A stretch of DNA of 24,215 nucleotides. Source: a virus. Below, in pieces: positions 1 to 21,083 of this stretch. The notes beneath the pieces are model-generated. The model saw nothing but the letters and a program-made list of their open reading frames with translations. It did not search any database and was not told the origin of the DNA. The stretch covers positions 1-24,215 of the IMG/VR virus record IMGVR_UViG_3300027833_000215; one strand, given 5' to 3'. The translations under genes and the position numbers were made by a program. The first letter of the stretch is position 1, and each line of letters begins with the position of its first letter.

Positions 1-283
1 CGCCGTCCCAATGTAATTCTTTAACTACGTGAGATGCATTCTTTAATGATACTACTGCAGATTCTGGATGATCTAATTCACCAAAAGCGTTTCCGTTATT
101 AACGAATTCATCAACATACTTCTTAGCTTCTCTCATTAAGAGCTCTTTCTCGTATATCCTGCCGTTTTGATTCTTAGCTCCAGCCCTTTGCATTACTCCT
201 TCAACTTCGAATACTCCGGGTCTTTCCTTGGATTCTCGAAGGATGGATTTAAATGGTGTAACATTTATTAATACATTTGACAT
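1..283 (-). CDS. 21: Prohead (capsid maturation) protease, gp21 family, 3'-partial
   Basis: The reading frame opens with ATG at 283-281 and runs off the left edge, giving the first 94 residues. It carries the N-terminal signature of the T4 gp21 prohead serine protease family: G29-V-M-Q-R-A-G-A-K-N-Q-N-G-R-I-Y44, then G68-E-L-D-H-P73, then S84-H-V-V and L-H-W-D-G. By alignment from memory, H72 matches the catalytic His85 of T4 gp21 (GELNHP in T4); the catalytic Ser lies beyond the window. The enzyme cuts scaffold, core and capsid proteins inside the prohead after (I/L)-x-E. A site of that kind, L15-R-E17|S18, lies at its own N-terminus and could be used for self-processing. The ATG follows the stop of the 773-residue gene by two bases, so the two are probably translationally coupled. 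The order portal, core proteins, protease matches T4-like phages. Confidence 0.88.
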   Translation of the reverse strand, partial: MSNVLINVTPFKSILRESKERPGVFEVEGVMQRAGAKNQNGRIYEKELLMREAKKYVDEFVNNGNAFGELDHPESAVVSLKNASHVVKELHWDG

Positions 284-11735: not shown

Positions 11736-12368
11736 TTAATCTTCCCAAATAACGTTTTTAAACTTTTCTGGGGATAATCCGAAGTAATCCGTTCTCCATT
11801 GTGTTTGTTTGAAAAAATCCAAATTATACCATTCATCTTTCTTTTTCCATAATTTATCAGCTGCATCATCCCAATCTAAATTAAGAACAAATTGTTCAAT
11901 TTCCAACTTTTTCTCAAGTAATGTATCGTAATCAAATGAATCCCATTCGTAATGAAAGACTTCAAATACAGCATCTTCAGAAACATAATCAATAGATATA
12001 TCTATACCCCATTTAGGTTTCATTTTAACTAGCTTATGTAACATTGGATTAGTCTGTGCTATAGCTAATAGTTGCTCCTTAGCGTGATCGTTATACCCCT
12101 TTCTTTCAAATAAGTCTGAATGATTGATATGTGCTCCGGCTCTCTTACCACAAACTAGCCAAGGAGATCTTAAACAATCTTCATGTCTTCTTTCTACAGG
12201 ACTGTATCCATTAAATGGTAAAAAAGTCTGTTCCGCTTTAGTTAAGTGGTATCCGTTCTGATCGAATAAGTCTACGCAGTTTCTGTCTTTAAGTATATTA
12301 ACGTCCTCTGTAGCATTAACAAAATAAGCGTCTCTATTAAGTGTACTTTCCGTTAATATCATTGGCAT
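11736..12368 (-). CDS. Unknown 210-residue phage protein
   Basis: I do not recognise this protein. It is rich in Trp, Asp, Lys and Phe, with an H-E-D-C-L-R-S-P-W-L-V-C segment (about 62-73), a D-I-S-I-D-Y-V strand (about 123-129), and a D-D-A-A-D-K-L-W-K-K-K-D-E-W helix (about 165-178). No signal peptide or membrane segment is visible. The N-terminus MPMILTESTLN has a site-like L5-T-E7|S8, but lacks the basic tag style of its neighbours. An alternative start two codons later (ATG at 12362-12360) would form the ATGA overlap with the upstream stop that is frequent in this window, and may be the true start. Two Cys (C66, C73) could form a disulphide or metal site; this is speculative. Confidence 0.6.
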   Translation of the reverse strand: MPMILTESTLNRDAYFVNATEDVNILKDRNCVDLFDQNGYHLTKAEQTFLPFNGYSPVERRHEDCLRSPWLVCGKRAGAHINHSDLFERKGYNDHAKEQLLAIAQTNPMLHKLVKMKPKWGIDISIDYVSEDAVFEVFHYEWDSFDYDTLLEKKLEIEQFVLNLDWDDAADKLWKKKDEWYNLDFFKQTQWRTDYFGLSPEKFKNVIWED

Positions 12369-12997
12369 TGGTAATTAAGGTAGCGTTGGAGAGCTTTAGC
12401 GTATGTTGTACCCTTATCTTTTAGTTTTCCTTTTGCTGTCTTTACTTTACTGCAAGATAGCTTACCTAATCTTTTTTTTAAAATACCGGGATTCATTGGT
12501 TCATGATCTCCTTCATTAGTTGAAAATACTGTTGGATCTGCTACTAGTTCCCCTACTTTAAATTGTAGTTCTGATTCTATTCCTAGAACTCCTAATGGTC
12601 CACCAATTTTCTCTACCTTATCTTTTTCCCCTTTTAGTCTAGAGTTATAGTACTCTACATAATCTAAAGCTTCTTTTTTCGTTACTCTTTTAGTATCTTC
12701 GTATTCACCTTCTTCATTAGTATATATGTAGAATGTTCCAACAGTATCGTTAAATATGCTACGTAGTTGATCGCTATCTAAATTTCTTTTCCCGTCTATA
12801 ACACTTAGTAGTGTAATATTGTCCGAAGTGGTAATAGTTTCGTTTTTAGATTTCTCTAATTTATCACCTGCTTTCTTTGCTGCTTTAAATGCTTTTGAAT
12901 TGCCGTGTGATGCTTTTTCACCTCTTTTTTTCTTAGCATTTATATTAGCCCATAAGCTTTCTTTTATAATCTCTCTTAGTAGGTTTGATAGTTTCAT
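12359..12997 (-). CDS. Tagged basic protein of unknown function
   Basis: This 212-residue protein begins MKLSNLLREIIKESLW, one of the clearest copies of the shared N-terminal tag, with a site I11-K-E13|S14. Immediately after comes a very basic W-A-N-I-N-A-K-K-K-R-G-E-K stretch (16-28), then S-K-A-F-K-A-A-K-K-A-G (34-44), a type of sequence I recall in several marine phage proteins. A middle domain (about 58-165) contains T-F-Y-I-Y-T-N-E-E-G-E-Y. The C-terminal segment (about 172-212) has K-K-R-L-G-K-L-S-C and K-A-L-Q-R-Y-L-N-Y-Q-C, with two Cys, and I recall it as a recurring phage C-terminal module. Basic and tagged, it could be a head-packaged, DNA-associated protein like the T4 internal proteins. 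That is inference; no enzymatic motif is visible. Confidence 0.65.
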   Translation of the reverse strand: MKLSNLLREIIKESLWANINAKKKRGEKASHGNSKAFKAAKKAGDKLEKSKNETITTSDNITLLSVIDGKRNLDSDQLRSIFNDTVGTFYIYTNEEGEYEDTKRVTKKEALDYVEYYNSRLKGEKDKVEKIGGPLGVLGIESELQFKVGELVADPTVFSTNEGDHEPMNPGILKKRLGKLSCSKVKTAKGKLKDKGTTYAKALQRYLNYQCQ

Positions 12998-13398: not shown

Positions 13399-13977
13399 CT
13401 ACTTTATGTGTTCTGACAGATGTGTTATATATTGACGTACATTTTTTAAAATATCCTTTTCTTTAGCTTTGTTTGATTGCCAATCCTCTATGTCTCCTGC
13501 TTCTGTAACAAAGCTGTCCTTACCGTTTACCAGGTCTATTGCCCAATTTTCTACATCGTGTGCAAATGCTTTCATATTGCCTTGCATCATACGCTTTTCA
13601 TATTGTTCGTACAATCCTGCTTTTCTTAAATTAGCCTCCATTTCTACGGTACAAGGGTCAAAACAGAACCCATGTATCTTATACATTTTTTTTGCTAAGT
13701 GATGTTTCATCGGTCCTCCGCAGGTAGGACACCTAAGGGGTATCCTTAAAGCTTTTTTTGCTTCATCTAATTTAGTAATATTCTGCTTAACCCCATTGCG
13801 AATAGTCCACTGCCTTCCTTCGTCTTCCCAAATATCTCCTTCAGAGTACTTTTTAAGAACTTTCTTATATCCGGATTGTTGTTTAGTACCGGAAGTAAAG
13901 TCTTTATTAACTAAATTACGTACTCTTTCAACGTCTGATTTCTTAAACTCTTTTTTAAGGAGTGATTCATTACTCAT
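13399..13977 (-). CDS. Conserved zinc-finger phage protein
   Basis: This is a 192-residue protein with a four-Cys zinc site: C83-P-T-C86 and C105-x3-C109, with H92, H93 and H102 between. The N-terminal half has S-D-V-E-R-V-R-N-L-V (14-23) and G-D-I-W-E-D-E-G-R-Q-W-T-I-R-N-G-V-K-Q-N (47-66), a pattern I recall in other T4-like and marine phage proteins of unknown function. The C-terminal half is helical and charged, and A155-G-D-I-E-D-W is followed by a long helix. It could bind nucleic acid or act as an adaptor; nothing shows catalysis. The start overlaps the end of the HAD phosphatase gene by eight bases, so the two are in one transcript. Confidence 0.7.
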   Translation of the reverse strand: MSNESLLKKEFKKSDVERVRNLVNKDFTSGTKQQSGYKKVLKKYSEGDIWEDEGRQWTIRNGVKQNITKLDEAKKALRIPLRCPTCGGPMKHHLAKKMYKIHGFCFDPCTVEMEANLRKAGLYEQYEKRMMQGNMKAFAHDVENWAIDLVNGKDSFVTEAGDIEDWQSNKAKEKDILKNVRQYITHLSEHIK

Positions 13978-14506
13978 ATCCTAGCTCTTTTAACTTATTT
14001 ATAACTGATGCTGAATCTCCGTCTTTACACCTGATTGCTATTCCACCACTAGCAGTCCATTCTGCAATATTAGATGGTTTATCGTCTATAAGAATACTAT
14101 TTTCGTTTGCATACCTTTGTTTATCTTTTGAGTAAGCAAAAATTACTTTTGGCTGTGGGTTTAAGTTTCCTTTTGCCCACATATTTTTGCCTAGACGTGA
14201 ATTATTATCTCTTGATGGAGATGTTAACAAGTCAGGGGAATATGGACTAATAAAGTTCCAAAGTGCTTTTCCTTGCGGCATAAAGTCCATATCGGACCAA
14301 AATACTATTCCTACCTCGACATCGATTAAGTTCCAAAAAGCTTTTATACCATGCTTGTTTTCATATTCTTTCGGGGACATTCCTGAGTAGTGTTCAAAAC
14401 GTGATTCAAAGTCTGTTAGTACTCCGTCCATATCGCAATAAATCTTGTACTGAGGGATTTCTTTTACCGGGTGTGCTTCTAATAAGTCTACTATGCTATT
14501 CTTCAT
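13970..14506 (-). CDS. HAD-superfamily phosphatase / 5'-nucleotidase-like, tagged
   Basis: This 178-residue protein has the HAD phosphohydrolase motifs: motif I Y-C-D25-M-D27-G-V-L (nucleophile D25, acid/base D27), motif II T95-S in L-L-T-S-P, a likely lysine in the 107-120 region, and motif IV I-L-I-D141-D142-K-P-S-N. These are the hallmarks of small 5'(3')-deoxyribonucleotidase-like or phosphate-monoester hydrolases. The substrate cannot be told from sequence; nucleotides or nucleic-acid ends are likely in a phage. Before the domain is a 20-residue leader, MKNSIVDLLEAH, with a prohead-protease-like site L8-L-E10|A11 at exactly the position used in T4 internal proteins. That suggests the enzyme may be packaged and injected. 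It overlaps the upstream metalloprotease gene by 11 bases and the downstream zinc-finger gene by eight. Confidence 0.82.
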   Translation of the reverse strand: MKNSIVDLLEAHPVKEIPQYKIYCDMDGVLTDFESRFEHYSGMSPKEYENKHGIKAFWNLIDVEVGIVFWSDMDFMPQGKALWNFISPYSPDLLTSPSRDNNSRLGKNMWAKGNLNPQPKVIFAYSKDKQRYANENSILIDDKPSNIAEWTASGGIAIRCKDGDSASVINKLKELGYE

Positions 14507-14888
14507 ATCTTTTCCAATTTATTTCTTCTGCAGTTGCTGCTAATTCGTATGGGTGGCTACAGTATGTATGTCCCATATTATAGTACCTAGTCATCCAACT
14601 AGGAGATTGTAAGTAGTGTTGGTATTCGTGAATCAGAGTTTCTATTATCTGTTTCCTGCTTGTCATTTGAGGATAGTATATAATAATGGAATTTATAATT
14701 CTATCATACTCAGCATCTGGACATTCTTCTCCTAATGTTCCATCATCGTCTTCTCCTGCTAATCTTGAATATATACTTTTTTCGTAATCAACATAAGGGC
14801 TACAGTCCAAAAACTTACTATACCCGTAATCTAATTCTATCTTAGGAAAGACTTCTTCTACTATTTTTTTTATTTTATCTAATTTCAT
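14496..14888 (-). CDS. Small HExxH zinc metalloprotease-like protein
   Basis: This 130-residue protein has a clear metallopeptidase motif, T84-L-I-H87-E88-Y-Q-H91, in which the two His bind zinc and Glu is the base. A downstream H112-P-Y-E115-L-A-A-T-A-E-E supplies a likely third Glu ligand, as in gluzincins. The size is minimal for the fold. The N-terminus MKLDKIKKIVEEV resembles the shared tag of other proteins here, but V10-E-E12|V13 is a poor cleavage site. Possible targets are host proteins early in infection or peptide cross-links during lysis; there is no evidence to choose. No signal peptide is seen, so it should act in the cytoplasm or be carried in the virion. It overlaps the HAD gene and is preceded by a 45-base AT-rich gap. 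Confidence 0.75.
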   Translation of the reverse strand: MKLDKIKKIVEEVFPKIELDYGYSKFLDCSPYVDYEKSIYSRLAGEDDDGTLGEECPDAEYDRIINSIIIYYPQMTSRKQIIETLIHEYQHYLQSPSWMTRYYNMGHTYCSHPYELAATAEEINWKRYEE

Positions 14889-14933: not shown

Positions 14934-16244
14934 CTAATTCTTAATATTATCTTCCCAGTTTCTGAAAGTTATATTGCCTTCTAAGTATGCTTCTTTTTCT
15001 AATTCTAGTAAATTACTGTCTTCGTTTGTATTGGTAGTTCCTACTCCCCCTAACCTGCCTTCTAAGTTCTGTTTATGGTGAATCATTTCATGTGCAAATG
15101 ATCTCATTACATCTTTCGGATGTCTTCCCTGTACATAAAGTACAACTTCTTTTTTAGTTGGGTCATAGTAAGCTGTTTTACCAAAGAAATTTGAAGATTC
15201 AGCTATGTCTTTCTTAATCTTTACTTCCGGTAAAGGTGTTATGTTCATTCCTTCGTCTATCATGTATTCGAGTATTGAACCCATGAAAGGAGTATAATCA
15301 AACCCAATCCTCTGGTCTTCATCTTTATTTTTTATAATAATATGATCATGATTATAATTTATGTCGTAGTATTGATCTCCAATAACGTTCCTTAACCTAT
15401 TATATAAAGTAACAAGTTTTACTCTATCTGCTGATTTCATTACTCCTTGAGGAGCTATAGCAGTGCCAGAAGAACCTTCTTCTAAAGCTCTATTTGCTGG
15501 TTCGTTATTGTGTCCACATTTATGACACATATATAAATCATCGCCTCCGCTTGAGATATCCCAGCTCCAATCGCAATTTTCACATTCGATTTTATCTTCT
15601 ACGTTAAACATTCCATTTAGCTTTTTTTCAAGATCTTCTTGCATTATTTCAGCTATTATACTCGCTTTTAACATATTCATTATTTTTAAAATCTCATCTC
15701 TAGATAAGGCTTCTGGGAAGAAATCTAATACTTCGTCTAAATTTCCTGATAATATTGCATTTCTAAAATCTGTTGCTCTAACATTAGAGTTTGTACCTGC
15801 TGGTATTACCAATCCTTGTACGTTTTCTCTATTTTTAAATGTAGTAACTCTTTTTAAATCTGGTAAATCCTCTTCCGCCCTAATTCCTGTTATAGCATAG
15901 AACTTATCACTTTCATTAGCTTTAGCATAGTCTTTAGCTGCAAACATCGGGTTTTTTTCACCGTCCATTACTACAAGTCCTGGAAGGTATTTAGCATATA
16001 TGTTCCATACGGCTATCGACTCTTCTTTAGTAATTCCATTTCTAGAACCTCCTCCAATGAATACTAGCACCTTCTCTATCTTATCTAGTTGGTCTCCAGT
16101 ACCTTGTAGCACACTCGTACCTGCTTCTGCATAAGAATCTATATCGTATACCTTACCTCCATGATTTCCGTTTAGTAATCTTTTTACTACTTCAAAATGT
16201 CCTCTGTGGGGAGGTTTAAATGCTCCTGGATATAATGCTATCAT
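14934..16244 (-). CDS. Nucleotidyltransferase - zinc ribbon - HExxH metalloprotease fusion
   Basis: Three parts are visible in 436 residues. Residues 1-185 are a cytidylyltransferase/adenylyltransferase-like domain: A3-L-Y-P-G-A-F-K-P-P-H13-R-G-H16 (HxGH motif), V60-L-V-F-I-G-G-G, and S153-N-V-R-A-T-D-F-R as the ISxxR-like end. Residues 215-250 form a zinc ribbon with C221, C224, C240 and C243 (pattern CENCDWSW...MCHKCGHN). Residues 345-436 hold a metallopeptidase motif, S382-F-A-H384/E/M/I/H-type HEMIHH (about 384-389), followed by E-L-E-K-E-A-Y (414-420) as a likely third ligand. A putative prohead-protease site, L254-E-E256|G257, lies just after the ribbon and would free the protease. NMN adenylyltransferase, sugar or lipid nucleotide activation are all possible for domain one. 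It overlaps the kinase gene upstream by four bases. Confidence 0.8.
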   Translation of the reverse strand: MIALYPGAFKPPHRGHFEVVKRLLNGNHGGKVYDIDSYAEAGTSVLQGTGDQLDKIEKVLVFIGGGSRNGITKEESIAVWNIYAKYLPGLVVMDGEKNPMFAAKDYAKANESDKFYAITGIRAEEDLPDLKRVTTFKNRENVQGLVIPAGTNSNVRATDFRNAILSGNLDEVLDFFPEALSRDEILKIMNMLKASIIAEIMQEDLEKKLNGMFNVEDKIECENCDWSWDISSGGDDLYMCHKCGHNNEPANRALEEGSSGTAIAPQGVMKSADRVKLVTLYNRLRNVIGDQYYDINYNHDHIIIKNKDEDQRIGFDYTPFMGSILEYMIDEGMNITPLPEVKIKKDIAESSNFFGKTAYYDPTKKEVVLYVQGRHPKDVMRSFAHEMIHHKQNLEGRLGGVGTTNTNEDSNLLELEKEAYLEGNITFRNWEDNIKN

Positions 16245-17182
16245 TTCAAAAATTTCTGTACTTTTACTTCAATTTCTCTTTCTGATGAGTGTTTCAATTG
16301 TTGTTGAAACTCTGAGTTTGTTAACATATCTGCTATATTAACTAATACTTCTTTCTCTCTTTCTTTATTCCTGATATATCCTCTTTCGATTGTATCTACC
16401 TTCTTCTTCATTTTATCATCACCAGGACCGGTACCGTTCTTTTCGTAAAATTTAAACCAATACTTCTTTAATTCTTTATGCATAGATTCGTTTTCTCTAT
16501 CAAATTCAATATTTCTATTTTCCTCTTCAAAAGCTGTTTTTGCATCTTCGCTTGGCAGGTCATAAGCTTTTCTAAAAGTTGAACCGTATGCTTCTTTTCC
16601 TCCTGTCTTTTCGATATAAGATTCAAGGTAATCTGCTACACCGGAAGCACCTCTTTCTGCTGCTTTGTTAAACTCTTCTATTTCTTTTCCAAATTTATCT
16701 TGTCTAAGGTTAACAAATAGTGAAAAGTTATCACCTAGTAGGTCTGTATATCTACCTATTAGTTGGTACACATTCCTCCAAGTAGAGAATACTGCGGTTT
16801 TTGGGACTCTTCTTTCTCTAGAAAAGTTGTTAATAAAAGCTACCATAGGGTGTGTGTACACCATTACCATATACACATCATACCCTTTGTCAATAAGGTT
16901 CTGTATCTTAGCTGGGTTAGATGCTGTAGTGTCCCATACAAGGGATTTACCTGTCTCCGCCGCCGCTTGGACGTCTTTGTCTACTTGTCCGCTGGCTGCG
17001 GATAGGTTGTTGTGGTACGGGTGTTGTGGGTCTTCTACGTATTTGTCTGGGTTGAACATTGGTAGGCTTATTAATCCTAATTTGTCTATTAGGTACGATT
17101 TGCCTGCTCCTGCTCCCCCTGCCATTACTACTGCTTTCGGTCGTTGTGACGCTTCGAAGATTAGGTTTGCTAGTTTTATCAT
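16241..17182 (-). CDS. Zeta-toxin-like P-loop kinase, tagged
   Basis: This 313-residue protein has a Walker A loop G22-G-A-G-A-G-K-S29, then F43-N-P-D46-K, then V83-W-D-T-T-A-S-N, and an Arg-rich S121-R-E-R-R-V-P lid segment. The layout fits the zeta toxin / AAA_33 kinase group, whose members phosphorylate UDP-N-acetylglucosamine or nucleic-acid and nucleoside substrates; the substrate here is not known. The rest (190-313) is charged and helical. The start MIKLANLIFEAS carries a site I8-F-E10|A11, at the same residue as in T4 internal proteins. The first 236 bases overlap the end of the lipoprotein gene in another frame, and a promoter-like motif lies 27 bases before the ATG inside that gene. 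The end overlaps the nucleotidyltransferase fusion by four bases. No antitoxin partner is recognised. Confidence 0.8.
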   Translation of the reverse strand: MIKLANLIFEASQRPKAVVMAGGAGAGKSYLIDKLGLISLPMFNPDKYVEDPQHPYHNNLSAASGQVDKDVQAAAETGKSLVWDTTASNPAKIQNLIDKGYDVYMVMVYTHPMVAFINNFSRERRVPKTAVFSTWRNVYQLIGRYTDLLGDNFSLFVNLRQDKFGKEIEEFNKAAERGASGVADYLESYIEKTGGKEAYGSTFRKAYDLPSEDAKTAFEEENRNIEFDRENESMHKELKKYWFKFYEKNGTGPGDDKMKKKVDTIERGYIRNKEREKEVLVNIADMLTNSEFQQQLKHSSEREIEVKVQKFLK

Positions 17183-17759: not shown

Positions 17760-18542
17760 TTATAGTTTTATAGTTGTAGGGTAACTATTATAAATAGGTT
17801 CTGTATTAGGGTTCTCTAAAGAGTATAACTTGTAAATCATTTTAAATAATTCAAAGTTCTCTTCTATTTCATCTATCTGTAAGACTTTCCACCCTTTACC
17901 TTGTATTACGTTCTTTTGTTTTGAAGGTCCTCTAGATTGTGCTTTTAACCAGATTATACCTGTACGCTGTATTTTTATACCTTTCGACTCTTCTAAAGCT
18001 TTGGCATAAGATGCAAGCTGTAAATCAAATGATTTATGTACACTGTTTGACGTTTTAATATCCAGTAACCATATTTCTCCGTTCATCTTAACGACTAAAT
18101 CAGCTGTTCCTGCATACTTGTGTTCATCTGACCAAACGAAATCTTCTGCTGATATTAATTCTGGCTTATGGGTACGCCAAAAGTCTGCAAATTTTAATAT
18201 CATTTCCCATACTATCTGAGAGTACTTAGCATTACCGTAATCATCCATCCAGGTAACTTCCTCTCCTAGCACCAGCTTTTCTGCTGCTTCATGAACTTGT
18301 GTACCCTGTTTACCTGCTCTTCGCATAATAAGATCGGCGTTATGCCCGACGTCTTTCATCCAAGATTCAAAAAACTTGTTTTTGGGCATATACTGGAGTA
18401 TTGTAGTTACGGATGGGTAAAATACTCCTTCACCTCTCTTATAAACTCTCCTATCTAAAAAGTTAATCTGCTTCAATTGCGGATTAAAATTTAACCGTTT
18501 CTTTTCATTCTGTTCAAGAATATTCATTCCTTGTTTTATCAT
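17760..18542 (-). CDS. PD-(D/E)XK nuclease, RecB-like exonuclease
   Basis: This 260-residue protein has the ordered motifs of the RecB/Cas4-like nuclease family: H84 in G-T-Q-V-H-E-A-A-E, D148 in Y-A-G-T-A-D-L-V-V, D161-I-K163 in W-L-L-D-I-K-T, and the Q175-L-A-S-Y179 motif. These residues bind the metal and position DNA for exonucleolytic cutting. No Cys cluster like that of Cas4 is present. It lies immediately after the primase gene, overlapping it by four bases, so a role in phage replication or recombination (end resection) or in recycling host DNA is likely. A possible alternative start is Met6. It shares no tag or cleavage site with the effector-like genes, consistent with an intracellular enzyme made after infection. 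Confidence 0.85.
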   Translation of the reverse strand: MIKQGMNILEQNEKKRLNFNPQLKQINFLDRRVYKRGEGVFYPSVTTILQYMPKNKFFESWMKDVGHNADLIMRRAGKQGTQVHEAAEKLVLGEEVTWMDDYGNAKYSQIVWEMILKFADFWRTHKPELISAEDFVWSDEHKYAGTADLVVKMNGEIWLLDIKTSNSVHKSFDLQLASYAKALEESKGIKIQRTGIIWLKAQSRGPSKQKNVIQGKGWKVLQIDEIEENFELFKMIYKLYSLENPNTEPIYNSYPTTIKL

Positions 18543-19462
18543 AAATCTAATTTATACAACATTATTTTAGAAAAGTCCAATTCTGTTGCGTTCTGTACTA
18601 ACTTAGTAAACTCTTTAAAACCCATATCTGATGGATCTTTGCCAAGTAGTTCTATTAAAAATACTCTAAATCCTGCAGCGATTAATTTTTCTGCTATCTC
18701 TAAAGCTTGCTTTTGTGCATCTGTATCTAATGCAATGTATATATCTGTTAATGTTCCTGTGAGTAATCTTTTCCATAATGCCGGTGATAGGCTTTTCCCT
18801 AGAATAGGTATTGCGTTTCTACGTATTGACATGGCATCAAATGCGCCTTCACATAGTATTACTGGCTTATTCCAGTTTATATGATTTTCAAAAAATACTA
18901 TGTCTTTAGAAGCTTCTGGATTTTTGTATTTAAAATAAGCTCCTTCGTAAGTTCTTCCAACAAAATAGTTGAGCCTATTGGACTCAGAATAGCTTGGGAT
19001 AATAATTCGTCCTCCATAGTCTCCAGTAGTTGTGTATCCAATATTATGTTTAACAAAATCATTGTGGGTAAGTCCTCGTTCATTTAGGTATTTTCTAATT
19101 TTATTAGCTATAATAGATGTATTAGAAGCAGTTACTAATGATTGGAATTCTTTAGGTAGCTCTACTACATCTTCACTTTTATATTCGTACTTAATCCCCT
19201 TCTTAACGTATTTTAGAACTTCTTGTGCTTCGCTTTTTGGTAAGTTTAATTGCTTTACTAATGAATATATAGATTGACCTCTTGATTTACATACCCAACA
19301 TTCCCAGAAGTTCTTACCTTCTTCGTTAGTAACCATACTAATTTCAAGCTTAGGTTTGCGGTGATTACAAAAAGGACAGTGAAAAGCGTAGTTATCTCTA
19401 GCTCTTTTTTGACTCTTTCCTAATATATTCTCTATTGACCCTAATAAAAAAGTATAATCCAT
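18539..19462 (-). CDS. 61: DNA primase, zinc finger and TOPRIM (DnaG / T4 gp61-like)
   Basis: This 307-residue protein makes RNA primers for lagging-strand synthesis. The N-terminal zinc finger has H28-C29-P-F-C32 and C55-W-V-C58. The TOPRIM catalytic core shows E205 in V-I-L-C-E-G-A-F-D-A-M-S, and D246-T-D248 in I-Y-I-A-L-D-T-D, the acidic residues that bind magnesium. A typical G-R-I-I-I-P segment (151-156) of the primase core precedes them, and K275-D-P-S-D-M-G matches the conserved region that follows. The length is close to T4 gp61 (342 residues), shorter than bacterial DnaG because no helicase-binding domain is visible. In T4 the partner helicase is gp41; it is not in this window. The gene is preceded by 47 AT-rich bases and followed, with a four-base overlap, by the RecB-like nuclease. 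Confidence 0.92.
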   Translation of the reverse strand: MDYTFLLGSIENILGKSQKRARDNYAFHCPFCNHRKPKLEISMVTNEEGKNFWECWVCKSRGQSIYSLVKQLNLPKSEAQEVLKYVKKGIKYEYKSEDVVELPKEFQSLVTASNTSIIANKIRKYLNERGLTHNDFVKHNIGYTTTGDYGGRIIIPSYSESNRLNYFVGRTYEGAYFKYKNPEASKDIVFFENHINWNKPVILCEGAFDAMSIRRNAIPILGKSLSPALWKRLLTGTLTDIYIALDTDAQKQALEIAEKLIAAGFRVFLIELLGKDPSDMGFKEFTKLVQNATELDFSKIMLYKLDL

Positions 19463-19509: not shown

Positions 19510-19941
19510 CTATACGTCGATCATTTTAAGTTTTGAGGATTTTGGGTGAATCATAATGTTATCTCCCACAAAGTCTAGTTCGTCTGATGGAATTCCAAGT
19601 CTTGTTGCTTCTTTTTCTGTTGCAAGGACAAACTCTTCAGGAACTTCTCCTTTAAATTTACCTAGAACTTCCATTTCTATAACTGCTAATTTTTTATCTA
19701 TAACTTCTACATCGTATATGTAGACGAAGTTGTTTGTCTTCTTACCTTTTATTATTAAAGCATGTTCTATTTCAACTTCATCTGTTGTTACCTTTACTGC
19801 TTTACCATTTAAAAGAAAAACTGAACCATAGTCTCCGGAACCTATATAAGTTGCTCCTTGATCCTTTAGCTTTTCTACTTGCTTTTCAAAACCTGGATCG
19901 TATTCTAAGGGTCCTTCTAATATAATTTTTGAAAGTTTCAT
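19510..19941 (-). CDS. Minimal protein kinase-like protein with capsid-targeting-like tag
   Basis: This is a 143-residue protein with a compressed kinase fold: glycine loop Y32-I-G-S-G-D-Y-G-S-V-F42, ATP-binding lysine K50 in A-V-K-V, a helix-C glutamate (E56, E58 or E59), hinge-like I88-E-M-E-V-L, and a catalytic-loop match L122-D123-F-V-G-D-N128-I-M-I with the D-to-N spacing of eukaryotic-type kinases. The DFG-equivalent Asp is D142 in M-I-D-V, and the protein stops one residue later, so the activation segment and C-lobe are missing. It starts MKLSKIILEG, with a site I7-L-E9|G10, almost identical to the neighbour's MKLSNIILNEQ. Possible roles are phosphorylation of host proteins at DNA entry (compare T7 gp0.7) or a pseudokinase. 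The gene ends 47 bases before the primase gene. Confidence 0.72.
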   Translation of the reverse strand: MKLSKIILEGPLEYDPGFEKQVEKLKDQGATYIGSGDYGSVFLLNGKAVKVTTDEVEIEHALIIKGKKTNNFVYIYDVEVIDKKLAVIEMEVLGKFKGEVPEEFVLATEKEATRLGIPSDELDFVGDNIMIHPKSSKLKMIDV

Positions 19942-19943
19942 TT

Positions 19944-20294
19944 TTATACTTTAGGTACGTCTAAATTAAAGTTAAATTTAATTTTCGGAAAATAATCTCT
20001 CTCTCCCGGTTCGTTTTCATAGTAATTAGTAGATTGCTCTTCATCTACTTCATATCCTTTGCTACTTACTGATGCGATTGCTTTACTAAATTCGTTTTCT
20101 GGTAATTCGTCTTTATGTAAAAACGTTATTGAGCCATATCCTTTGTTTTTAAGCGGATCACTGTCGGGTCTAGGTTGATGATATGCACCCATTGATACAT
20201 ACGGTCTGTATTCTTGATTTAATTCTCTCTCTAGTGTCTCTATTTGAGATTTAAATTCATTCTGTTCGTTTAGAATTATATTTGATAATTTCAT
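19944..20294 (-). CDS. Small tagged protein of unknown function
   Basis: This 116-residue protein begins MKLSNIILNEQNEFK, sharing its first eight residues almost exactly with the kinase-like protein two bases downstream; the putative cleavage would be L8-N-E10|Q11. After the tag come a charged helix (12-29) and a small domain with G-Y-G-S-I-T-F-L-H-K-D-E-L-P (53-66), then an F-S-K-A-I-A-S-V-S-S-K-G-Y-E-V (69-83) helix-strand unit, and a final strand K-I-K-F-N-F-N-L-D-V. I do not recognise a family. The pairing with the kinase-like gene and the shared tag suggest a common fate, possibly both packaged in the head. The start overlaps the cupin-like gene by four bases (ATGA). Confidence 0.65.
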   Translation of the reverse strand: MKLSNIILNEQNEFKSQIETLERELNQEYRPYVSMGAYHQPRPDSDPLKNKGYGSITFLHKDELPENEFSKAIASVSSKGYEVDEEQSTNYYENEPGERDYFPKIKFNFNLDVPKV

Positions 20295-20545
20295 TTTCTT
20301 ATAATTTTGAGAGACAAATCTCCTGTTCCTTTAATTAGTCGGTGATATACTCCCTTTGGTATAAATAGTAGCCGTGTTATCTTTCTTGGTAATTCGTTGT
20401 CAAATTGGAACATCCAATCTGTTTCTTTTACCGGATCTATAAGCCTATCTTCTCTATCTTTATGCCAAACGAATTCATCTTCTGGTGTATTCTGATTGAA
20501 GATTCTTATATCCTTGTTTTCTATATATGGTCTACCAGTATCCAC
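20291..20545 (-). CDS. Small cupin-like phage protein
   Basis: This 84-residue protein has a conserved-looking F25-V-W-H28-K-D-R-E-D-R34 segment, then W44-M-F-Q-F-D-N50-E-L-P, I62-P-K-G-V-Y-H68-R-L-I-K-G, and a final strand L-S-L-K-I-I-R-K. This pattern of short beta strands with two His-containing motifs fits a small cupin fold, and I recall close relatives in T4-like marine phages annotated only as hypothetical. H28, D30 and H68 could bind a metal. Function is unknown. It lies between the 183-residue protein (14-base overlap) and the tagged 116-residue protein (four-base overlap). It carries no N-terminal tag. Confidence 0.7.
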   Translation of the reverse strand: MDTGRPYIENKDIRIFNQNTPEDEFVWHKDREDRLIDPVKETDWMFQFDNELPRKITRLLFIPKGVYHRLIKGTGDLSLKIIRK

Positions 20546-21083
20546 TAAAGTTTTTTGATCCTCCTAATGACTTCCAGTAGCGGCCGATATTACACGCCCA
20601 GTAGCCTGGTTTTGTTTTATCTTTCTTTGTAGCGCATTTATGCCTAGCAGCAAAAGATGATCTTGCACCTGGTTCATCTATTTTAACATTCAACCCTGTT
20701 GTACCTCCGAAGGATACTTTCTGTACATTCCCTTTTTTATTTTTAACATAAACGTAGAACTTTTTAGATCCTCCTCGTTTAGGTTTATTAAGCGGTACTT
20801 CCTTACCTTGGTACTCTGCTTCATTAACCGACTCCATTGGTAGGTCTAAAGGAACTTTTTTTCCTTCGTATTGACCATATATTCCAATATCTGTATCTTC
20901 TAACAGATTAGCATCTGCTTCGTTAAGTTGAATATACCCGTCTCTCCAAGAGTCTCTTGCTTCGCTAAATAGTTGTATAAACTTATCGCTAGAGTAGCGG
21001 TAGACATTCTCATGTAATGAGAGGTCATTGTCTAAGTGGTACTGTAGTGTAGGAAGTCCTACTAGATCTTTAATTTTTATCAT
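20532..21083 (-). CDS. Modular small phage protein with duplicated motif, several putative protease sites and Cys-containing C-terminal domain
   Basis: This protein has 183 residues. The N-terminal part (1-60) has helices and ends in sites that fit prohead protease cleavage: F39-S-E41|A42, L53-N-E55|A56 and V86-N-E88|A89. Between residues 70-81 and 90-101 a short motif is repeated (QYEGKKVPLDLP and EYQGKEVPLNKP). The C-terminal domain (107-183) has K-K-F-Y-V-Y-V-K-N-K-K-G-N-V-Q-K-V-S-F-G-G, then A145-A-R-H-K-C150 and P159-G-Y-W-A-C164, and ends in G-Y-W. I recall this C-terminal domain in many marine phage proteins, function unknown. The layout suggests a linker-rich protein trimmed to release the C-terminal domain, perhaps inside the head. 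It overlaps the GIY-YIG gene by 14 bases. Confidence 0.68.
   Translation of the reverse strand: MIKIKDLVGLPTLQYHLDNDLSLHENVYRYSSDKFIQLFSEARDSWRDGYIQLNEADANLLEDTDIGIYGQYEGKKVPLDLPMESVNEAEYQGKEVPLNKPKRGGSKKFYVYVKNKKGNVQKVSFGGTTGLNVKIDEPGARSSFAARHKCATKKDKTKPGYWACNIGRYWKSLGGSKNFSGYW
20781..20876 (-). repeat. Two-copy internal repeat encoding Y-x-G-K-x-V-P-L
   Basis: Two degenerate copies of a 12-residue unit (protein residues 70-81 and 90-101) lie in tandem, separated by a putative protease site (V86-N-E88|A89). This looks like an old duplication within the gene. Confidence 0.5.

What the first reader, a model, noticed from the sequence alone, without database searches (positions are those of the whole stretch)
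19510..19941. Kinase of only 143 residues that stops right after the DFG-equivalent Asp and bears the tag
Glycine loop, ATP lysine (K50), catalytic-loop Asp and Asn (D123, N128) and metal Asp (D142) are all present, yet the chain ends one residue later with no activation segment or C-lobe helices. It would be among the smallest kinase-fold proteins, and with the tag MKLSKIILEG it is a candidate injected kinase. The neighbour gene has almost the same tag (MKLSNIILNEQ).
Basis: partly seen in the sequence, partly recalled or inferred. Interest (0 to 1): 0.62.

Follow-up and report, generated by a model that had tools for sequence, protein, structure and literature searches.

The report
Tiny half-kinase with capsid tag
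A phage of marine bacteria carries a natural, conserved protein kinase cut down to its ATP-binding half, carrying a short tag like the one that puts proteins inside phage heads; it may be one of the smallest kinases known and may be injected into the host.

Summary
The minus-strand ORF at 19510-19941 encodes 143 residues with a glycine loop, K50, D123, N128 and D142, and stops one residue after D142. It is not a truncation: in IMG/VR, 73 of 73 distinct full-length relatives end exactly one residue after the last Asp. AlphaFold gives a confident kinase fold (pLDDT 88.5) that maps onto CDK2 residues 1-146 and stops at DFG. A blind profile search of 296 Bacteroidota genomes hit 9, all canonical Ser/Thr kinases, each match ending at the DFG Asp. 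No C-lobe gene lies beside it: the next gene is the primase in 25 of 26 contexts. The first 9-10 residues fit the T4 gp21 cleavage motif L/I-x-E, and the window encodes a gp21-type protease, so packaging and injection are plausible but unshown. Loss of the C-lobe has a precedent, Kinase-PolyVal (PMC5512222), but this family does not match it: a new variant of a known kind. One clade, with the only isolate, lacks the catalytic Asp (0 of 19), so catalysis is unsettled.

The parts
19510..19941 (-). CDS of the 143-residue C-lobe-less kinase-like protein (stop TAG 19510-19512)
   Evidence: 74-sequence alignment; AF2 pLDDT 88.5
19912..19941 (-). N-terminal tag, residues 1-10 (MKLSKIILEG), candidate capsid targeting sequence; disordered in the model
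   Evidence: residues 1-11 pLDDT under 50; L/I-x-E with Glu in residues 4-22 in 68 of 73 relatives
19915..19923 (-). I7-L8-E9, candidate cleavage site of the gp21-type prohead protease (cut after E9)
   Evidence: T4 gp21 motif L/I-X-E in PMC9026906 passages; conserved in position
19825..19842 (-). Glycine-rich loop G34-S-G36-D-Y-G39
   Evidence: G36 and G39 invariant 74 of 74
19792..19794 (-). K50, ATP lysine of strand beta3
   Evidence: invariant 74 of 74; aligned to the VAIK-type Lys of Ser/Thr kinases
19771..19773 (-). E57, candidate alpha-C glutamate
   Evidence: invariant 74 of 74; lies in predicted helix 55-64; distance to K50 not measurable here
19558..19575 (-). Catalytic loop D123-F-V-G-D-N128
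   Evidence: D123 55 of 55 in main and L046 clades, 0 of 19 in immuto clade; N128 74 of 74
19513..19518 (-). D142-V143, DFG-equivalent Asp and the C-terminal residue
   Evidence: D142 74 of 74; 73 of 73 relatives end one residue after it
19944..20294 (-). Upstream neighbour, 116 aa, tag MKLSNIILNEQ, function unknown
   Evidence: cluster c6, 15 of 16 distinct members tagged
18539..19462 (-). Downstream neighbour, DnaG-type primase; leaves a gap of 47 bases, no room for a C-lobe
   Evidence: phrog_47 E 1.7e-50; gap 47
2..283 (-). gp21-type prohead core protease (Peptidase_S77), cut by the contig end
   Evidence: Pfam E 9.2e-13

Best explanation
A small protein kinase that has lost everything after the DFG Asp and is packed into the phage head. 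Steps and status: (1) it descends from Hanks-type Ser/Thr kinases and keeps the N-lobe, one C-lobe helix, the catalytic loop and the metal Asp (shown by sequence profile and predicted fold); (2) the stop at DFG+1 is the native end, kept across the family (shown); (3) it binds ATP-Mg through the glycine loop, K50, E57, N128 and D142 (inferred from invariance); (4) residues 1-9 or 1-10 act as a capsid targeting sequence, are cut after the Glu by the gp21-type protease, and leave a mature protein of about 134 residues in the head (inferred from motif and T4 precedent); (5) it is injected with the DNA into a flavobacterial host and phosphorylates a host protein early in infection, as an analogue of T4 Alt in delivery and of T7 gp0.7 in chemistry (inferred, weakest step). 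Docking of the substrate, or a second copy, would have to stand in for the missing helices.
For: Blind profile search of 296 Bacteroidota genomes: 9 hits, 9 of 9 canonical HRD...DFG kinases, all aligned to profile position 142; profile-profile 97.6% probability over the whole core (targets chosen). Fold; independent clade model pLDDT 95.7. Native end: 73 of 73, the only one of 12 gene clusters with no variation at the C-terminus (24 of 24; the others 4 of 20 to 22 of 25). Catalytic set conserved, purifying selection. Tag: 68 of 73; head block of phage immuto 20 of 28 proteins against 7.1 expected, early genes 29 of 148 against 31.5; S77 protease in the window; T4 CTS facts from PMC9026906 passages.
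Against: No biochemistry and no virion proteome. The 19 distinct sequences of the immuto clade have S, L or R in place of D123, yet stay under purifying selection (dN/dS 0.21), so at least there the role may not need classical phosphotransfer. The 5 sequences of the L046 clade have no tag although their neighbours c7 and c8 do. L/I-x-E is a loose motif: the exonuclease also shows it in 22 of 25. No canonical kinase is known to me that works without alpha-F and the activation segment (recalled).
Confidence: 0.42

Rival explanations
1. A packaged or free pseudokinase: it binds ATP but does not transfer phosphate. It acts as a decoy or blocking partner, for instance by pairing with host Ser/Thr kinases or kinase-based defence proteins of which it is a half-copy.
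For: Total lack of the activation segment and alpha-F to alpha-I; loss of D123 in a whole clade with the ATP-binding residues kept; closest cellular profile matches are large Ser/Thr kinases of Bacteroidota.
Against: D123 kept in 55 of 55 sequences of two other clades that lie on both sides of the immuto clade in a midpoint-drawn tree (root unknown); a pure decoy would not need it.
Confidence: 0.3
2. An enzyme with other chemistry, for example a small-molecule kinase or a nucleotidyl transferase, with the metal site but not the usual base.
For: Kinase folds with other chemistry exist (SidJ and SelO as recalled; SidJ is named in PMC9950578 passages). The immuto clade lacks the base and has a four-residue insert at the catalytic loop.
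Against: Nearest sequence relatives found are protein kinases; no ligand evidence.
Confidence: 0.12
3. The tag is not a capsid address; the protein stays in the producing cell, for example acting on head assembly or on replication (primase and exonuclease are next door).
For: Fixed position next to primase in 25 of 26 contexts; tagless clade L046; tag-like motif also on the exonuclease.
Against: The same motif at residues 9-10 sits on unrelated neighbours (HAD enzyme 15 of 16, zeta-like kinase 15 of 15, c6 15 of 16) and on none of 26 primases, 27 tail-fibre-type proteins or 8 c13 proteins; enrichment only in the head block.
Confidence: 0.25
4. A local truncation, frameshift or split gene whose C-lobe lies elsewhere.
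For: The chain ends where a kinase would go on.
Against: 73 of 73 relatives end at the same residue; gap to the next gene is -1 to 186 bases in 26 contexts, 47 in the window; no relative with a C-lobe found.
Confidence: 0.02

Closest known systems
Kinase-PolyVal (PF18762; Iyer et al. 2017, PMC5512222, section read)
   Same: Kinase domain with the C-terminal subdomain lost and the active site kept; in (pro)phages and mobile elements of Bacteroidetes; stand-alone versions; role in phage-host conflict proposed.
   Different: Family does not match the profile (0 of 24 members at E up to 1; of 25 only L173, E 0.31) or a five-sequence PolyVal alignment (3.6% and 1.6%). No Gln in the last N-lobe strand, no His plus insert before the Asp. 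PolyVal members read here run 7 or more residues past the Asp. This family has a head-targeting-type tag, which the paper's section does not mention.
Hanks-type Ser/Thr protein kinases of Bacteroidota
   Same: Glycine loop, VAxK lysine, D-x4-N, metal Asp in order; matched end to end up to DFG.
   Different: No DFG Gly, activation segment, APE or helices F to I; HRD His and Arg replaced.
T7 gp0.7 kinase (phrog_15752)
   Same: Phage kinase; weak profile match of 18 of 24 members, best E 0.00017, over the glycine-loop region.
   Different: gp0.7 is longer (260-position profile) and, as recalled, is made early in the cell, not injected.
T4 internal head proteins and Alt
   Same: Short N-terminal propeptide ending L/I-x-E, gp21-type protease in the same genome, T4-like head genes; Alt is an injected protein-modifying enzyme (PMC9026906 passages).
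   Different: Cargo is a kinase fold; virion presence and cleavage not shown.
HopBF1, a minimal effector kinase (PMC9950578 passages)
   Same: Described as a minimal and atypical kinase fold, injected into a target cell.
   Different: Type III effector of plant pathogens acting on eukaryotic HSP90; no homology tested.

Membership tests
Hanks-type protein kinase | Glycine-rich loop and beta3 lysine | tested here: met
   G36, G39, K50 invariant 74 of 74
Hanks-type protein kinase | alpha-C glutamate in ion pair with the lysine | tested here: inconclusive
   E57 invariant 74 of 74 and in a predicted helix; no coordinates to measure the pair
Hanks-type protein kinase | Catalytic loop H-R-D-x4-N | tested here: inconclusive
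   D and N met in 55 of 74; N without D in 19 of 74; His and Arg absent
Hanks-type protein kinase | DFG, activation segment, APE, helices F to I | tested here: not met
   Only D plus one hydrophobic residue, then stop, 73 of 73
Protein kinase-like fold | Fold of N-lobe and catalytic core | tested here: met
   VIA Z up to 10.6, 120 aligned, rmsd 3.7, model 16-143 to kinase residues ending at DFG; 999 of 999 chains Z 2 or more
Kinase-PolyVal (PF18762) | Loss of the C-terminal subdomain with active site kept | tested here: met
   (active site complete in main and L046 clades only)
Kinase-PolyVal (PF18762) | Match to the family profile | tested here: not met
   0 of 24 at E up to 1; 1 of 25 at E 0.31; none in the window record
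Kinase-PolyVal (PF18762) | Glutamate N-terminal to strand 2 | tested here: not met
   Main clade has S, A or Q there; Glu only in most of the immuto clade rows shown
Kinase-PolyVal (PF18762) | Gln in the last N-lobe strand, and insert between His and Asp | tested here: not met
   M90 invariant in the main clade, no conserved Gln, no His before D123
T4-type capsid-targeted internal protein | N-terminal propeptide of about 7-19 residues ending L/I-x-E | tested here: met
   window E9; 68 of 73 relatives
T4-type capsid-targeted internal protein | Cognate prohead protease in the same genome | tested here: met
   Peptidase_S77 E 9.2e-13 at 2-283
T4-type capsid-targeted internal protein | Present and cleaved in the virion, ejected with DNA | not testable with these tools
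   no proteome; no primary paper on phage immuto in the library (search listing only)
T7 gp0.7 kinase | Profile match over the kinase domain | tested here: inconclusive
   18 of 24 match phrog_15752, best E 0.00017; for the window only residues 20-55

The most novel reading that the evidence does not exclude
A lineage of catalytically competent protein kinases of about 134 mature residues that end at DFG+1, lost the C-lobe separately from Kinase-PolyVal, are carried inside T4-like phage heads by a targeting tag, and phosphorylate host proteins on injection: the smallest protein kinases and the first known virion-delivered ones. In the immuto clade the same scaffold has given up the catalytic Asp and does something else.
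Probability: 0.28. Interest if true: 0.85.

Novelty: new variant of a known kind. Interest (0 to 1): 0.58.

Why it matters
Textbook accounts need helix F and the activation segment to hold the kinase active site together (recalled). A conserved family that stops at DFG would test the least protein that can hold ATP-Mg and transfer phosphate. If it is also packaged, it adds a kinase to the injected enzymes of T4-like phages, beside the ADP-ribosyltransferase Alt. The isolate phage immuto on Flavobacterium sp. LMO8 makes packaging testable at once, and the natural loss of D123 in its clade gives a built-in comparison.

Tried and rejected
Sequence searches that gave nothing: Pfam on the window protein, 0 families at E up to 1; NCBIfam 0; PDB by sequence, only designed proteins at E 0.2 and worse; genome contigs with A1, 591 stretches, none a relative; T4-like late promoter TATAAATA, 9 against 5.4 expected and 13 of 100 shuffles as high, so dropped. 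Frameshift and split gene: rejected. Membership of Kinase-PolyVal: rejected on profile and features. 'The fixed C-terminus alone proves function': softened, since the exonuclease also ends alike in 22 of 25. Profile hits to PDB kinases by sequence are weak (best 0.013 for SteC; 55 of the 56 listed are kinases, one a haemoglobin; with A2 several non-kinases come in), so I rest instead. E-value is conditional, as its targets were picked. Rows dropped: of 78 distinct C-terminal strings 5 were left out, two cut by the end of the DNA held (L043, L047), one half (L128), two with interrupted frames (L156, L160). Of the 151 relatives only the best 80 were returned. In the pattern scan (38 stretches), 3 were chance frames (L184, L187, L194); one gave the distant homologue L173. 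Papers: no primary paper on phage immuto in the library (listing); searches for C-lobe-less or virion kinases in phages listed nothing of use (listings); the term Kinase-PolyVal is in one paper (listing).

Full report
What is there. The window is a 24,215-base virus fragment with T4-like head genes: portal, terminase large subunit and a Peptidase_S77 prohead protease. All main genes run on the minus strand. The gene of the finding lies at 19510-19941, minus, 143 codons and a TAG stop. The named residues are all there and the chain ends at V143, one past D142.

A family, not a fragment. A scan of IMG/VR with the single protein gave 47 relatives out of 51 candidate stretches, a scan with the alignment 151 of 222 with the best 80 returned, and scans with two distant members 7 of 18 and 32 of 50. 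The one isolate group is Flavobacterium phage immuto, 45.8% identical over 88% of the query, in 4 records. After removal of duplicates there were 78 distinct C-terminal strings, of which 73 were full length; 73 of 73 end exactly one residue after the last Asp, that residue being V in 61, I in 7 and Y in 5. In a set of 12 neighbouring gene clusters the kinase was the only one with no variation at the C-terminus (24 of 24), though the exonuclease came close with 22 of 25. A pattern scan found one far relative, L173, of 197 residues, beside the terminase gene of another T4-like contig; it ends ...LKLVDF and matches the family profile at 97%.

Kinase identity. AlphaFold on 24 family sequences gave mean pLDDT 88.5 and pTM 0.80, with residues 1-11 disordered. 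A separate run led by the most divergent clade gave pLDDT 95.7. Foldseek and VIA-align match kinases throughout; the aligned range stops at DFG, for example CDK2 1-146 against model 22-143. Sequence evidence independent of the fold: a profile of 25 members searched against 296 Bacteroidota genomes hit 9, with best E 5.4e-5, and 9 of 9 lie in large Ser/Thr kinases with HRD and DFG, each match ending at profile position 142. The profile-profile comparison with those nine gives 97.6% over the whole core, with K50, D123, N128 and D142 on the expected partners. The targets were chosen by the search, so this E-value is conditional.

Active site across the family. In 74 sequences G36, G39, K50, E57, N128 and D142 never vary. 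D123 is present in 50 of 50 of the main clade and 5 of 5 of the L046 clade but in 0 of 19 of the immuto clade, which has S, L or R there and a four-residue insert. Both small clades are single groups with full support, on a tree with few columns and no true root. Selection is purifying in both (median dN/dS 0.15 and 0.21). I read this as ATP-Mg binding throughout, and phosphotransfer likely in the window's clade but not shown.

No C-lobe in trans next door. In 26 contexts with a following gene the gap is -1 to 186 bases, and the next gene is the primase in 25; the exception, immuto, has a 182-residue tagged protein in between. Of the genes before it, the GIY-YIG (c1), c4 and c6 clusters recur.

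The tag. PMC9026906 passages give the T4 facts: gp21 cuts after L/I-X-E, propeptides of internal proteins are 10-19 residues (7 for Alt), and ten residues of IPIII suffice for packaging. In this family 68 of 73 carry L/I-x-E near the N-terminus, mostly with Glu at residue 9 or 10; the 5 without are the L046 clade. In phage immuto, L/I-x-E with Glu at 4-22 occurs in 20 of 28 proteins of the 101-128 kb block against 7.1 in shuffles, but in 29 of 148 early proteins against 31.5 and 5 of 44 others against 7.2; in the window in 14 of 26 against 5.5. Per cluster it is on the HAD enzyme 15 of 16, the zeta-like kinase 15 of 15 and c6 15 of 16, and on 0 of 26 primases; it is also on 22 of 25 exonucleases, so the motif is not proof. 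The L046 phages keep the tag on c7 and c8 while their kinase has none, so the tag is separable from the kinase.

Known or new. Iyer et al. [quoted passage not shown] That is the same kind of thing. I fetched members from 10 of 296 Bacteroidota genomes; those read run seven or more residues past the Asp. The window family fails the profile, the profile-profile test (3.6% and 1.6%) and three distinguishing features. PolyVal itself links to the Ser/Thr kinases at only 7.1% in the same test, with just five sequences. So this is a second lineage that cannot be joined to PolyVal by these tests; whether the C-lobe was lost once or twice is open. Phage Presley holds a further short kinase-like protein, found by fold, that ends 17 residues after its LLD.

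Verdict. A real, conserved, natural half-kinase, probably one of the smallest with a full catalytic set (main clade), and a fair candidate for delivery in the virion. Kinase descent and native end are shown by computation; nucleotide binding is inferred; activity, packaging and target are untested.

Noticed in passing
16241-17182 (-), 13970-14506 (-), 14496-14888 (-), 12359-12997 (-): Other enzymes and unknowns of the head block carry the same kind of tag: zeta-toxin-like kinase (Pfam E 3.4e-10; MIKLANLIFEA), HAD/5'-nucleotidase-like (MKNSIVDLLEA), a possible metallopeptidase with HEYQH (MKLDKIKKIVEE), and an unknown (MKLSNLLREIIKES). They look like a set of packaged enzymes.
   Followed up: partly
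L049 (phage immuto) genes at record 103806, 117631, 118632: A second repeated N-terminal motif, FDLKKFLVENKLT-like, on three proteins of the head block; possibly another targeting tag.
   Followed up: no
immuto clade, e.g. L129:6001-6438: Whole clade replaced the catalytic Asp and gained EGPGG-type insert while keeping the ATP-Mg residues.
   Followed up: partly
L173:626-1216: Single distant homologue of 197 residues beside the terminase gene, also ending at DF; no further relative found in IMG/VR.
   Followed up: partly
BFVD hits: Many unannotated phage proteins of 159-217 residues match the half-kinase fold (Serratia phage Yaphecito 168, Cellulophaga phage phi19:3 175, Pectobacterium phage CBB 194); short phage kinases may be common and overlooked.
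   Followed up: no
20532-21083 (-): 183-aa protein of an unknown family (phrog_7595, E 1e-12) with a conserved Cys- and Trp-bearing C-terminal part, always near the kinase (cluster c4).
   Followed up: no
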